Shown in pieces: positions 9,017-12,772 of a stretch of 48,773 nt of DNA; the stretch's first letter is position 1; every line of letters starts with the position of its first letter. The stretch spans positions 1-48,773 of the forward strand of contig JAFXDG010000042.1 in the NCBI GenBank assembly GCA_017521285.1, written 5' to 3'. The notes under the pieces were generated by a model. The model searched no databases, was not told the DNA's origin, and saw only the letters and a program-made list of their open reading frames with translations. This DNA comes from Bacteroidaceae bacterium (GTDB lineage Bacteria > Bacteroidota > Bacteroidia > Bacteroidales > Bacteroidaceae). A program made the translations under genes and the position numbers.

Positions 9017-9082
9017 TAATCTGTTATTTTCTTGTTTTCTGAAAGAAAATGTGTTTCTTTGCAGATAGAAAAAAGAAATGCG

Positions 9083-9415
9083 ATGAAAGAAGTGTTGAAA
9101 CATTCTGATGTATTGACTGAAATACGTGGTGTGGCTAAGACTGCAATGCCATGTGGAGGACGTATGTTTCTATTTGGTTCGCAAGCTCGTGGAGATGCGC
9201 GAGTGGATTCGGATTGGGATATTTTGATTCTGTTAGATAAGGAAAGGATTAAGAATGAAGATTTTGATACTATCGCTTATCCAATAGTTGAACTTGGATG
9301 GAAACTTGGTGTTGAAATCAATCCGATTCTGTACACTTACAGTGATTGGGAAAAGAGATATTTTACTACCTTTTACAAAAATGTACAAAAAGACAGAATA
9401 GAACTATGGCTTTGA
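9083..9415 (+). CDS. MNT-type nucleotidyltransferase, antitoxin of an MNT-HEPN pair
   Basis: 110 residues from the start at 9083 (an in-frame ATG at 9032 precedes a region with promoter-like sequence and is less likely). Residues 32-46 read GSQARGDARVDSDWD, the nucleotidyltransferase signature GSxxRGxxxxxSDxD, with D44 and D46 as metal-binding acids. Minimal nucleotidyltransferases paired with a HEPN RNase are known toxin-antitoxin modules in which the MNT protein inactivates the toxin by adenylylation. The HEPN gene starts at 9406, overlapping by 10 bases. The gene appears intact. A weak promoter (CTTG 9031-9034, 19 bases, TTTCTTTG 9054-9061) precedes it. Confidence 0.85.
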   Translation: MKEVLKHSDVLTEIRGVAKTAMPCGGRMFLFGSQARGDARVDSDWDILILLDKERIKNEDFDTIAYPIVELGWKLGVEINPILYTYSDWEKRYFTTFYKNVQKDRIELWL

Positions 9416-9832
9416 CAATTGATGAGAAAAAAGCAATTATCGCATATAGGATTGAAAAGTCACGAAAAACAATGATTGAGGCTCGTGACAATGCGAAAAT
9501 GAAACATTGGAGTCTGGCTGCCAATTGTTTGTATTATGCGTTGTTTCAGATAGCTTCAGCGTTGCTGGTTGACAAAGGATATACGTCGAAAACTCATAGT
9601 GGATATTGTGTATTCTTGGACAAGAATTTGTGGCTAAAGGTTTGTTGGGGAAAGAATACAGACCGATAGAATCAGAACCAACTGTCGCCGCCGACCCTGC
9701 GGTGGCGTATGGGTGTATGGATACGACTCCAAATTCGGCAAAATGAATCTCCCGGGAAACATTGGAGGCTGAGTGCTATTCGTTGGAAGAATCTAAGGCA
9801 AGACTCCTTGAACTTGAAACTTTAAACCTCAA
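9406..9832 (+). pseudogene. Broken HEPN-domain toxin partner of the MNT protein
   Basis: The first frame (9406-9669, 87 residues) reads ALTIDEKKAIIAYRIEKSRK, then WSLAANCLYYALFQIASALL and KTHSG, the usual HEPN helix pattern. It then runs out of frame. One base lost in the T pair at 9616-9617 restores FGQEFVAKGLLGKEYRPIES. Around 9680-9760 further changes interrupt the frame. A last recognisable piece, EAECYSLEESKARLLELE, lies at 9765-9818. HEPN toxins are about 125-135 residues and this one is not intact. Either the toxin is dead while the antitoxin survives, or several bases are missing from the assembly. The 3' limit is approximate. Confidence 0.7.
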
Positions 9833-9950
9833 AACAAGGACATTCCTTCTTCACCCCCGGCAAGTCGCGATGTCCGGTGATGCGTGCTTTCGGATAGTCA
9901 GTATGCAGGCGGTGGAGTGGTTGGTGAAAGTTTCAGGTTTCAGGTGAAAT

Positions 9951-9970
9951 GGGCTGTACTTCAGTAATAA
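9951..9970. repeat. Left copy of an imperfect direct repeat flanking the three-gene operon
   Basis: The sequence gggctgtacttcagtaataa at 9951-9970 matches ggactgtacttcagcaataa at 12662-12681 at 18 of 20 positions, in the same orientation. The pair brackets the DUF262-ATPase-effector operon (10060-12497) and little else, as boundary repeats of a mobile or exchangeable cassette would. No integrase or transposase is visible, so mobility is inference. Confidence 0.55.
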
Positions 9971-9983
9971 AAAACGTTATTCC

Positions 9984-10015
9984 TTTGGAATTTTGAAGGG
10001 AAATATGTTCCTTTG
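9984..10015 (+). promoter_or_regulatory. Bacteroidota promoter of the DUF262-ATPase operon
   Basis: A -33 box TTTG at 9984-9987, a 20-base spacer, and TTCCTTTG at 10008-10015, one base off the -7 consensus TAnnTTTG. Transcription would start about 10019, giving a 5' leader of about 40 bases before the DUF262 gene at 10060. Confidence 0.6.
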
Positions 10016-10059: not shown

Positions 10060-10515
10060 ATGAATAACACTATAGGCAGTACGGATTTCAGAATGCAGTA
10101 TTTTACCATTCGGGAATTGATGCAGAGAATGGATGATGAGCAGTTGATCGGTAAGAGAGTGCTTCGGAAACAATGGAATAGACAAAAGCAAATGAACTTT
10201 ATTGAATCCGTATTATCGGGCATTCCCATTGCTTCTGTCTATTTTGATGGTTCGAAACCGCGGTGGACAGTTTTGGATGGTGTGGAGCGGCTATGTGCCA
10301 TAGAGGATTTTGTAAATAATGCGTTCCCTTTAAAGGATTTGAATTTATTGTCGCCTGATTATGAAGATAAATTTTTCAGAAATTTCCCTTTTGCTGTGAA
10401 GCGCCGGTTTATGAATACTCCTGTAATCGGATATGTGCTGACAACAGAGTTGCCCAAAGAGGTGCTGGAACTTATTTTTAAGAGATTAAATGGTGAATAT
10501 GAATACGATGCTTGA
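10060..10515 (+). CDS. Short DUF262 (ParB/GmrSD N-terminal-like) protein, gene 1 of a candidate defence operon
   Basis: 151 residues. The order YFTIRELMQRM (14-24), then RKQWNRQKQMNFIESVLSGIPIASVYF (36-62), then WTVLDGVERLCAIEDF (69-84) matches the DUF262 N-terminal domain. That domain is known from GmrSD type IV restriction, SspE and BrxU, where it binds or hydrolyses nucleotides. The canonical DGQQR motif reads DGVER here (73-77): the two glutamines are replaced, the Asp and Arg kept. Full DUF262 proteins are usually several hundred residues with a C-terminal nuclease; this one ends just after the equivalent of the IFxRLN element, so it is a stand-alone N-domain. The next gene overlaps its end, so the two are translationally coupled. 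Confidence 0.75.
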   Translation: MNNTIGSTDFRMQYFTIRELMQRMDDEQLIGKRVLRKQWNRQKQMNFIESVLSGIPIASVYFDGSKPRWTVLDGVERLCAIEDFVNNAFPLKDLNLLSPDYEDKFFRNFPFAVKRRFMNTPVIGYVLTTELPKEVLELIFKRLNGEYEYDA

Positions 10516-11611
10516 ATATATTGTCTTAAAGAACTTCAAATGCTTTGATGAACTCCAGATTCGTTTGGCTCCGTTGACTCTCGTAACGGGTATGAATGGA
10601 GTTGGAAAATCAACATTGATCCAATCGCTGTTGATTATACGGCAGAGTTTTGTTGCACGGTATCTGCAAGATGGTTATATATCGCTGAACGGTGAGCTTG
10701 TGAATCTGATAAATGGAAGTGCTTTGTTGTATAATCAGGCAAATGACGAGTGTGTAGAAGTACGAATTGAAGATGAAGAAGACGAATACATTTTTACATT
10801 GCCAAAGGTGGAAAACGATAACCATCTGCAACTGATGGAAATATCTCCGGAGGGATACACTAAAAAAGGACTGCTTTTGTTAGAAGATGATTTTGTGTAT
10901 TTGAATGCAGAACGTTTGTCACCACAGATTTATTATAAACCGACCAATTCATCTGAAAAGAATTACAGCCGCATGGGAAACCGTCATGGCGACAAGGCGG
11001 TGGGGGTATTGTTTGATGCTATTGATAAGGTGGATGATTTGAACATTGTCGCATTAAAGGCTGAAACAGCTGCTTCCAATCGTGTGGGAGATAATGTGTC
11101 TGCATGGTTGGGATACATTATGGGGACAAAGATTACTGCGAAAGTTGAAAAAGTGAACAGTGAGGATTTGCGCTTGACTTATACGGTCGGTGATGTGGCC
11201 AAGGAAAATGTCTTTTCTCCGTTGAATACAGCTTTTGGAAATTCTTATCTGTTACCAATCATTGTAGCTGTGCTGACAGCGAAAAAAGGAGGACTGATTT
11301 TATTGGAAAATCCTGAGGCGCATTTGCATCCTGCTGCACAATTCAGATTGGGAAAACTTCTTGCTATGGCTGCAGAACAGGGTATTCAGTTGATTGTGGA
11401 GACACATAGCGATCATTTGTTGAATGGGATACGTGTAGCAGCAAAAAATGGCCAAATATCATCGGATAATGTAGCTATCCAATATTTTGTAGAACATGAC
11501 GGTTGTCATGATGCCCAACGGATTGTACTGAATAATGATGGGGAATTGGACTGTTGGCCTCAAGGCTTTTTTGATGAATGGGAAAAGGCTTTGGATTCAT
11601 TAATCGGCTAA
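10508..11611 (+). CDS. DUF3696-type AAA/SMC-like ATPase, gene 2 of a candidate defence operon
   Basis: 367 residues from the start at 10508 (MLEYIVLKNFKCF). Starts at 10490 and 10499 are also possible, but 10508 gives the short overlap ATGCTTGA with the upstream stop. Walker A GMNGVGKST at 28-36. Walker B/signature LLENPEAHLHPAAQ from about 265, followed by VETHSDHLLNGIR near 298-310, a layout typical of COG4938/DUF3696 ATPases related to OLD and RecF/SMC enzymes. In known systems such ATPases (OLD/Gabija, PARIS, AbiL types) sense phage or DNA and release a toxic or nucleolytic partner. No nuclease domain is fused here, which suggests the partner is the downstream protein. Confidence 0.85.
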   Translation: MLEYIVLKNFKCFDELQIRLAPLTLVTGMNGVGKSTLIQSLLIIRQSFVARYLQDGYISLNGELVNLINGSALLYNQANDECVEVRIEDEEDEYIFTLPKVENDNHLQLMEISPEGYTKKGLLLLEDDFVYLNAERLSPQIYYKPTNSSEKNYSRMGNRHGDKAVGVLFDAIDKVDDLNIVALKAETAASNRVGDNVSAWLGYIMGTKITAKVEKVNSEDLRLTYTVGDVAKENVFSPLNTAFGNSYLLPIIVAVLTAKKGGLILLENPEAHLHPAAQFRLGKLLAMAAEQGIQLIVETHSDHLLNGIRVAAKNGQISSDNVAIQYFVEHDGCHDAQRIVLNNDGELDCWPQGFFDEWEKALDSLIG

Positions 11612-11621
11612 GTGAACTGTC

Positions 11622-12497
11622 ATGAAATTACCGTTGAATGAGTGGGCGGCAGCTATAAGGTCTGAAACTTTTATTGGAAATGAGCCGTGGAATGAATTTG
11701 AACAATTGGTCAAAACCTTGGCCAATGAATACGACATTCAAAAAATCCTATTCACCAAAAGTGATGCATCTGACCTTCAAAAGGAAATTTATGCGCTACA
11801 ATCCAGAACAGAGCAGCAGAGAATGAAAACCTTTTATGATAAGTATATTGAAAAATACACAGTCTCCTCTTTTTCAGAGGAATATATTTGTCGGGAGGTG
11901 AAGATGAAAGAAAGCGTAGCGGTGCTGTTAACCGTGGCTTATAGTGAGAAAGTTCCCACTGTAAGCATTCTGTATGACAATGCCTTTGTTTGCGATTCGT
12001 TTAAGGCTTGTCTGTTTAACAGTCGGAAAGAAAAAGGAAAAACTGTGATTCTTAAGAATCTACATGTTGAGAATCTGGAAATATATAAAGAATTCTTTCT
12101 TACTGGAATTCCACCGCGTGAATTGAACCCCCAATCGAATCCTATATGGAATGTGGAAAAAACAAAAAAGTATTATGATACATTGCCTAGTTTGATAGGG
12201 TTATCTAAAGAAGAGAAAAATTACTTGTTTATTCAAGAGGGAACTCATGTGGCTCAATTGAATGGTTGGGAAAAAGATAAGAATTTGTCTGAAATCAATT
12301 CTACTTCTCAAAAAATGAGGCATGTGTTCCGTCCTAAAAAGTTTAAAGATAAAGATGCGGCTTTTTTGAGTATTGATTTTGAAAAACGAGCATTTGAATT
12401 ATTGAATCATCGGGGTAAGCATTTGGGTGAAATTTCATATTTGGGTGAGAAGAATACAGGCCCCAAGCCTAATCATGATATAAAGTTGAAACGTTAA
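11622..12497 (+). CDS. Unrecognised 291-residue protein, gene 3 and candidate effector of the operon
   Basis: I do not recognise a family for most of this protein. It starts 10 bases after the ATPase stop. Residues 1-190 look mixed alpha/beta and soluble. A middle segment reads HVAQLNGWEKDKNLSEINS. The C-terminal 44 residues hold D252 FEKRAFE259, then HRGKHLGE (263-270) and GPKPNHDIKLKR at the end. From memory this resembles the colicin E3/cloacin rRNase C-terminus (acidic and His catalytic residues, then GQHLGS, then GPDPKRNIK); however, the catalytic His between D and E in E3 is K255 here. It could be an RNase effector, an adaptor or a sensor. No signal peptide or membrane segment is seen. 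Confidence 0.55.
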   Translation: MKLPLNEWAAAIRSETFIGNEPWNEFEQLVKTLANEYDIQKILFTKSDASDLQKEIYALQSRTEQQRMKTFYDKYIEKYTVSSFSEEYICREVKMKESVAVLLTVAYSEKVPTVSILYDNAFVCDSFKACLFNSRKEKGKTVILKNLHVENLEIYKEFFLTGIPPRELNPQSNPIWNVEKTKKYYDTLPSLIGLSKEEKNYLFIQEGTHVAQLNGWEKDKNLSEINSTSQKMRHVFRPKKFKDKDAAFLSIDFEKRAFELLNHRGKHLGEISYLGEKNTGPKPNHDIKLKR

Positions 12498-12639: not shown

Positions 12640-12661
12640 TTTAGAGAACCCACCTTAAAAC

Positions 12662-12681
12662 GGACTGTACTTCAGCAATAA
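12662..12681. repeat. Right copy of the direct repeat flanking the three-gene operon
   Basis: ggactgtacttcagcaataa, 18 of 20 identical to the copy at 9951-9970 and in the same orientation. It lies about 165 bases after the third gene of the operon and before the leader of the aminotransferase gene. Confidence 0.55.
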
Positions 12682-12772
12682 TAAGTAATAGAAAAAATAG
12701 TCGGTATTCGCTAATTATTAATTATTTGTTAGATATTTCTGAGTTATCTACTGTTTGTTAGATATTTCTTTG

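What the first reader, a model, noticed from the sequence alone, without database searches (positions are those of the whole stretch)
10060..12497. Candidate new defence operon: short DUF262 protein, DUF3696-type ATPase and an unrecognised effector-like protein
Seen: three tightly coupled genes under one promoter (9984-10015), inserted in a polysaccharide locus beside a toxin-antitoxin pair. Known: DUF262 domains occur in GmrSD, SspE and BrxU anti-phage systems, and OLD/DUF3696-like ATPases in Gabija-, PARIS- and AbiL-type systems, usually with a separate effector. Inferred: the ATPase senses and the third protein acts, with the DUF262 protein as nucleotide-dependent regulator. I know of no named system with exactly this trio of a 151-residue DUF262, a 367-residue ATPase and this third protein.
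Basis: partly seen in the sequence, partly recalled or inferred. Interest (0 to 1): 0.8.

Follow-up and report, generated by a model that had tools for sequence, protein, structure and literature searches.

The report
Menshen phage-defence operon, shortened NsnA variant
These three genes look like a copy of a known bacterial anti-phage system called Menshen, in a gut-bacterial variant whose first protein has lost its second half and whose third protein seems to end in a ribosome-cutting domain like that of the bacterial toxin colicin E3.

Summary
The three genes are really there: one strand, overlapping or 10 nt apart, inside a polysaccharide locus. They are not an unnamed trio. Two features are unusual. 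(1) NsnA has 151 aa and covers only positions 44-185 of a 385-position model. Two other Bacteroidaceae share this short form, under purifying selection (dN/dS 0.11-0.15), as one clade (100/100) beside relatives whose DUF262 motifs are also eroded. (2) The end of NsnC matches the colicin E3 rRNase family profile-to-profile (P about 1e-6; controls 0.5-0.7), keeping equivalents of D510 and E517 but with Lys in place of H513. Best mechanism, inferred: NsnB-controlled activation of an NsnC ribosomal RNase (abortive infection), with NsnA as scaffold. The 2025 Menshen domain paper could not be read and may already describe this effector. A new variant of a known kind, of moderate interest.

The parts
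10060..10515 (+). nsnA, short form (DUF262 core only, 151 aa)
   Evidence: PADLOC NsnA 113.5 bits over profile 44-185 of 385; Pfam GmrSD_N 29.8 bits, below cutoff 33.2; ends at the IFKRLN motif as in L001 and L002
10508..11611 (+). nsnB, AAA_15/AAA_21 ATPase with DUF3696 tail (ORF opens at 10490; 367 aa from 10508)
   Evidence: PADLOC NsnB 331.4 bits, residues 7-372 over profile 1-343 of 345; Pfam AAA_15 and DUF3696
11622..12497 (+). nsnC, two-part effector candidate (291 aa)
   Evidence: PADLOC NsnC 33.5 bits, residues 206-288
12330..12494 (+). colicin E3-type (PF09000-related) C-terminal part of NsnC; D252, K255, E259, H267
   Evidence: hhalign A6 vs A5 P 1.3e-6; A4 vs A5 3.7e-6; A1 vs A5 4e-6; controls 0.51 and 0.74; the window sequence alone does not hit PF09000
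9984..10015 (+). possible Bacteroides-type promoter, one mismatch to the consensus
   Evidence: sequence; not an exact match
9947..9973 (.). left copy of a 27-nt direct repeat bracketing the operon
   Evidence: 85% identical to 12658-12684; the 17-nt core occurs exactly only at these two places in the assembly
12658..12684 (.). right copy of the 27-nt direct repeat

Best explanation
A Menshen (NsnABC) anti-phage operon of a Bacteroidaceae subclade. SHOWN by sequence: NsnB is an intact ATPase with a DUF3696 tail; NsnC ends in a part related to the colicin E3 ribosomal RNase; NsnA is cut down to its DUF262 core, lacks the full family motifs, and is nevertheless kept by selection. INFERRED: NsnB forms a complex with NsnA and NsnC and keeps NsnC silent; a phage-derived trigger acting on the NsnB complex, with ATP turnover, activates or frees NsnC, whose C-terminal part cuts 16S rRNA at the decoding site and stops translation, so that the infected cell makes no phage. 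In this clade the short NsnA serves as scaffold or adaptor rather than as an NTPase. Step by step (my estimates): Menshen 0.96; C-terminus of E3 ancestry 0.85; short NsnA functional 0.85; NsnA without NTPase activity 0.6; still an active rRNase in this copy 0.5.
For: All three genes match Menshen models, in order. Of 12 NsnB-bearing genomes among 399 Bacteroidaceae, 10 have a DUF262 gene directly upstream and 12 an ORF of 225-314 aa directly downstream. Two other species have the same short NsnA, with dN/dS 0.153, 0.113 and 0.124 for the three pairs, as one clade in the NsnB tree. The complete F/YQR, DGxQR and RINTG motifs are missing in 6 of 6 members of the wider group, while 11 of 11 correctly read outsiders keep DGxQR. 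NsnC C-terminus: D, E, G, H, E invariant in 11 of 11 relatives; L010 reaches PF09000 at its cutoff; profile comparison P about 1e-6 with controls at 0.5-0.7. Colicin E3 cuts 16S rRNA between A1493 and G1494 (PMC2615495, passages).
Against: The window NsnC alone does not hit PF09000; PF09000 is hit by only 2 of 11 relatives, one of them weakly; the C-terminal profile finds no colicin among PDB sequences. The His called essential in colicin E3 (PMC4905994, passages) is Lys in the window, L001, L002 and L026 and Asn in L010 and L058; it is His in 5 of 11. dS of the two window pairs of nsnA is 1.3-2.0, near saturation. The NsnC match of the window is short and weak (33.5 bits), and L058, one of the relatives used, hits no NsnC model at 1e-5. 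The deeper placement rests partly on a long branch, L027.
Confidence: 0.6

Rival explanations
1. Menshen in decay: nsnA was truncated by deletion and the operon is losing function, as the broken HEPN gene next door suggests.
For: NsnA lacks more than half of the model; the family motifs are eroded; the colicin-type His is replaced; the neighbouring HEPN frame appears broken.
Against: The same short end occurs in three species that differ by 24-30% in NsnA and NsnB at protein level or more, with dN/dS 0.11-0.15 for nsnA; nsnB and nsnC frames are intact.
Confidence: 0.12
2. Menshen with an effector that is not a ribosomal RNase: the C-terminus of NsnC is an E3-derived or look-alike RNA-binding or structural part, and the harm is done by NsnB (OLD-type) or by another activity.
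For: The His is not conserved (5 of 11). A review passage speaks of a predicted OLD nuclease and a TOPRIM domain in Menshen (PMC10952713). Other NsnC proteins end differently, and a related locus is said to end in a YoeB-like RNase (PMC11980606).
Against: No TOPRIM family is among the 17 Pfam matches of NsnB, and its DUF3696 tail ends the protein. The invariant D and E fall on colicin residues said to be essential.
Confidence: 0.25
3. A genuinely new, unnamed system that only resembles Menshen.
For: The NsnC match is weak and confined to the C-terminus, and NsnA is unusually short.
Against: NsnB is matched over its whole length at 331 bits, with all three genes in Menshen order. L003, L026, L027, L056 and L010 bridge to longer NsnA and to full NsnC matches.
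Confidence: 0.03

Closest known systems
Menshen (NsnA-NsnB-NsnC; attributed to Millman et al. 2022, seen here only through PADLOC and passages of PMC10952713 and PMC10121019)
   Same: Gene order, DUF262 first gene, ATPase second gene matched over its full length, NsnC third gene.
   Different: NsnA is 151 aa instead of about 320-650 aa in the other loci read; its motifs are eroded; NsnC matches only at its C-terminus.
ptuXYZ (PMC11980606, section 26 read)
   Same: DUF262 gene, P-loop ATPase, two-part third protein; it looks like Menshen under another name, which is my inference.
   Different: PtuZ is described with a YoeB-like BECR C-terminus; here the C-terminus resembles colicin E3. The PIN-like N-terminus could not be tested.
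Colicin E3 / cloacin / pyocin S6 rRNase domain (PF09000)
   Same: Aligned C-terminal stretch with D, E, G and H conserved.
   Different: Here it is the end of an intracellular three-gene system; Lys replaces the His in this copy; no + strand ORF of 60 aa or more lies between 12498 and 12942 that could be an immunity gene.
GmrSD, BrxU, SspE (DUF262 plus DUF1524 enzymes; PMC10952713, passages)
   Same: DUF262 core in the first protein.
   Different: No DUF1524 match in any of the three proteins; DGQQR is DGVER here.

Membership tests
Menshen | NsnA: DUF262 protein as first gene | tested here: met
   113.5 bits to PADLOC NsnA, but only positions 44-185 of 385; C-terminal half absent
Menshen | NsnB: ATPase of the NsnB family as second gene | tested here: met
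   331.4 bits, profile 1-343 of 345
Menshen | NsnC as third gene | tested here: met
   33.5, 25.9 and 25.1 bits to three NsnC models, C-terminus only
Menshen | A-B-C order on one strand, close together | tested here: met
   overlap and a 10-nt gap
Menshen | anti-phage activity | not testable with these tools
   needs an experiment
Colicin E3 rRNase (PF09000) | match of the protein itself to the family model | tested here: not met
   no PF09000 hit for the window sequence; relative L010 reaches the cutoff, 22.0 bits. So it is not filed as a member, only as related by profile
Colicin E3 rRNase (PF09000) | D510, H513 and E517 (essential according to PMC4905994) | tested here: inconclusive
   D252 and E259 fall on D510 and E517; K255 falls on H513
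GmrSD / BrxU / SspE | DUF1524 nuclease domain | tested here: not met
   none among the Pfam matches of the three proteins
ptuXYZ | YoeB-like BECR C-terminus and PIN-like N-terminus of the third protein | tested here: inconclusive

The most novel reading that the evidence does not exclude
A Menshen subtype of Bacteroidaceae polysaccharide loci in which the DUF262 subunit has shed its nucleotide pocket and C-terminal half and survives as a bare adaptor, so that sensing and gating rest on the NsnB ATPase alone, while the effector is a bacteriocin-type 16S rRNA nuclease recruited into an intracellular immune protein, working with Lys in place of the catalytic His.
Probability: 0.3. Interest if true: 0.5.

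Novelty: new variant of a known kind. Interest (0 to 1): 0.36.

Why it matters
It shows that the DUF262 part of Menshen can be reduced to about 150 residues without its nucleotide motifs. That separates 'DUF262 is required' from 'DUF262 nucleotide turnover is required' and makes the second testable. It also suggests that Menshen effectors include a ribosomal RNase of colicin E3 type beside the YoeB-like kind described for ptuXYZ; both would strike the ribosomal A site (for YoeB recalled, not looked up). As a discovery of a new defence system it does not stand.

Tried and rejected
Unnamed system: rejected by PADLOC. Truncation as artefact or pseudogene: made unlikely by two relatives with the same short form and by dN/dS; NG86 gave no usable dS for nsnB and nsnC of the pair window-L001, and YN00 failed for five of the nine comparisons. 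Phage-borne origin of this form: no relative in viral contigs by NsnB, NsnA or the NsnC alignment and no match for NsnC in plasmids or phages; distant NsnB relatives do occur in 2 phage records, 28 plasmid records and 15 viral contigs. A second DUF262 gene in the genome that might stand in for the lost half: PF03235 finds only this one at E 0.01 (assembly 86% complete). NsnC by sequence against PDB: nothing meaningful. The 27-nt repeat as a general capsule-locus element: its core has no match within 3 mismatches in eight relatives' loci and no exact match outside window-derived loci among the 67 loci held then. The L004 row was read in a wrong frame by my script and dropped; the correct L004 NsnA has all three motifs. 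L012 and L013 matched NsnB only over 45-48 residues and were left out of the later counts.

Literature: NAR 2025 gkaf357 on Menshen domain polymorphism is not held; I saw only its title and authors in two reference lists. Searches for NsnA/NsnB/NsnC names brought unrelated papers (25 of 72 listed, 15 of 145 listed, 1 paper). One search found 3 papers naming the Menshen system. One search (colicin E3 with anti-phage terms) listed 25 of 583 papers, none of those listed holding 'colicin E3', 'DUF3696' or 'PF09000'; it is no proof that this effector is unreported. One search found 1 paper and nothing on Menshen in capsule loci. Searches looked for the colicin catalytic residues.

Full report
OBSERVATION. 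The three ORFs exist as described: 10060-10515, 10490-11611 (probable start 10508, 367 aa) and 11622-12497, on one strand, overlapping or 10 nt apart. The surroundings are a polysaccharide locus: glycosyltransferases, hexapeptide transferases, a DegT aminotransferase, a GNAT protein and a PF02397 sugar transferase. The pair upstream is an NTP_transf_2/HEPN pair whose HEPN frame appears broken.

IDENTITY. PADLOC gives NsnA 113.5 bits, NsnB 331.4 bits and NsnC 33.5 bits for the three proteins in order. This is Menshen. A review (PMC10952713, passages) says that Menshen has DUF262 but no DUF1524, and that mutating or deleting the DUF262 gene abolishes resistance. PMC11980606 (section 26 read) describes a three-gene ptuXYZ locus with a DUF262 protein, a PtuA-like ATPase and a third protein with PIN-like and YoeB-like BECR parts; 'Menshen' does not occur in its main text. 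That the two are one system is my inference. NAR 2025 gkaf357 on Menshen domain polymorphism is known to me here only by title and authors and could not be read.

CO-OCCURRENCE. Of 399 Bacteroidaceae genomes, 12 have an NsnB match at E 1e-40. In those 12, 10 have a DUF262 gene directly upstream and all 12 an ORF of 225-314 aa directly downstream. Six of the ten upstream proteins were scanned and are NsnA by PADLOC; the other four are judged by their motifs. Six of the twelve downstream proteins were scanned and match NsnC; six were not scanned. The two loci without NsnA (L032, L034) have a protein of 113 or 91 aa in its place, without PADLOC hit at 1e-5. Among 15 distant viral-contig relatives an upstream ORF of 384-653 aa is present in 15 and a downstream ORF of 294-336 aa in 14; 5 of the 15 upstream ORFs were scanned and are NsnA, and 3 of the 14 downstream ones were scanned and are NsnC. 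So the genes do travel together, as a named system. With an alignment of five NsnC as query, 4 of 393 genomes of the order match at 1e-6, the window's own included, and the three others have NsnB next to it.

SHORT NsnA. The window NsnA covers positions 44-185 of 385. L001 (149 aa) and L002 (152 aa) have the same short form. All three run to the motif IFKRLN; L001 and L002 end one residue later, the window seven. The next gene overlaps or begins about 10 nt on, so nothing of the missing half remains between them. Nei-Gojobori dN/dS is 0.153 (window-L001), 0.113 (window-L002) and 0.124 (L001-L002), with dS 1.3 and 2.0 for the two window pairs. In an NsnB tree of 24 rows the short forms are one clade (100/100), inside a group with L003, L026 and L027 (100/99) and then L056 (97/92); L027 is a long branch. 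In L003, L026 and L027, whose NsnA have 345, 320 and 320 aa, the NsnA model also stops at positions 182, 181 and 188, and their C-terminal halves show little or no similarity to each other or to canonical ones. Three family motifs are eroded in these six members: none has a complete F/Y-Q-R (L001 keeps QR, L003 has FHR); none has DGxQR (DGVER or DGVERI-type in the short forms, DGRKR, TGERQ, DGFER); none has RINTG (the short forms end after RLN, L027 has LNASG). Outside the group, of 11 correctly read rows, 10 keep F/YQR, 11 keep DGxQR and 11 a recognisable third motif; L010 is the loosest. The likeliest course is decay of the pocket first and then one loss of the C-terminal half.

NsnC. The window protein has no meaningful Pfam hit. 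Its C-terminus aligns with ten others, with D, E, G, H and E invariant in 11 of 11. L010 reaches PF09000 at its cutoff (22.0 bits) and L056 weakly (E 0.17); scanned as C-terminal pieces, 2 of 11 match PF09000, best E 4.1e-5. A profile of five colicin E3-type domains (A5; L059 matches solved colicin E3 chains at 7.1e-10) aligns with three NsnC profiles at P 1.3e-6, 3.7e-6 and 4e-6, whereas the NsnA and NsnB profiles give 0.51 and 0.74. The three NsnC profiles share sequences, so these are not independent tests. PMC4905994 (passages) states that D510, H513 and E517 are essential in colicin E3. The window has D252, K255 and E259 there. At the His place 5 of 11 relatives have His (L003, L027, L033, L056, L057), 4 Lys (window, L001, L002, L026) and 2 Asn (L010, L058); four of the eleven (L003, L026, L027, L033) have one or two extra residues before the Glu. 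Against this reading: the PDB search with the C-terminal profile did not find colicin, the window sequence alone does not reach PF09000, and L058 hits no NsnC model at 1e-5.

MECHANISM. Shown: composition, order, motifs and relatedness. Inferred: NsnB senses and gates, NsnA is an adaptor, NsnC is a ribosome-cutting effector, since colicin E3 cuts 16S rRNA between A1493 and G1494 (PMC2615495, passages). With Lys in place of His, activity of this very copy is about an even bet. No structure could be predicted.

MOBILITY. A 27-nt direct repeat (85% identical) brackets the operon. Its 17-nt core occurs exactly at two places in the 3.38 Mb assembly, both here; two further places have 2 mismatches. 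In L001 the operon is bracketed by a 131-bp, 97.7% identical copy of the 5' end of a sugar transferase gene; in L002 the corresponding comparison gives only 25 nt at 80% (E 0.032), although the upstream DNA reads like the start of such a gene to my eye. All three short-form loci have a PF02397 sugar transferase and a glycosyltransferase nearby; L026 has a gene with a phage-integrase SAM-like domain upstream instead. This suggests, from a small sample, that the operon moves as a cassette into polysaccharide loci.

VERDICT. Observation confirmed; claim of a new system refuted; a new variant of a known kind with two testable oddities.

Noticed in passing
window 9032-9669: NTP_transf_2 gene overlapping a HEPN gene; the HEPN reading frame appears broken (PF05168 matches only positions 3-55 of 117, and the continuation reads in another frame).
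   Followed up: partly
window 9947-9973 and 12658-12684: 27-nt direct repeat on both sides of the operon; the exact 17-nt core is found nowhere else in the genome assembly.
   Followed up: partly
L001 5303-5433 and 8090-8220: 131-bp, 97.7% identical direct copy of the start of a sugar transferase gene on both sides of the Menshen operon, as if it had entered or moved recently.
   Followed up: partly
L032 and L034, ORF directly upstream of NsnB: NsnB and the downstream gene occur with a small protein (113 and 91 aa, Cas2-like to my eye, no PADLOC hit at 1e-5) in the place of NsnA.
   Followed up: no
L035 5088-5648 (same contig as L001): A second AAA_15 ATPase fragment of 186 aa about 2 kb beyond the Menshen operon, with a PIN-like gene between them by eye: a possible small defence cluster at the end of a polysaccharide locus.
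   Followed up: no
PMC11980606 section 26: The 'novel potential defense locus' ptuXYZ of that paper looks like Menshen under another name; the word Menshen is not in its main text.
   Followed up: partly
L033, L056, L057 NsnC C-termini: NsnC proteins outside the short clade also carry the colicin E3-type end, with the His present, so this effector type is older than the shortening of NsnA.
   Followed up: partly
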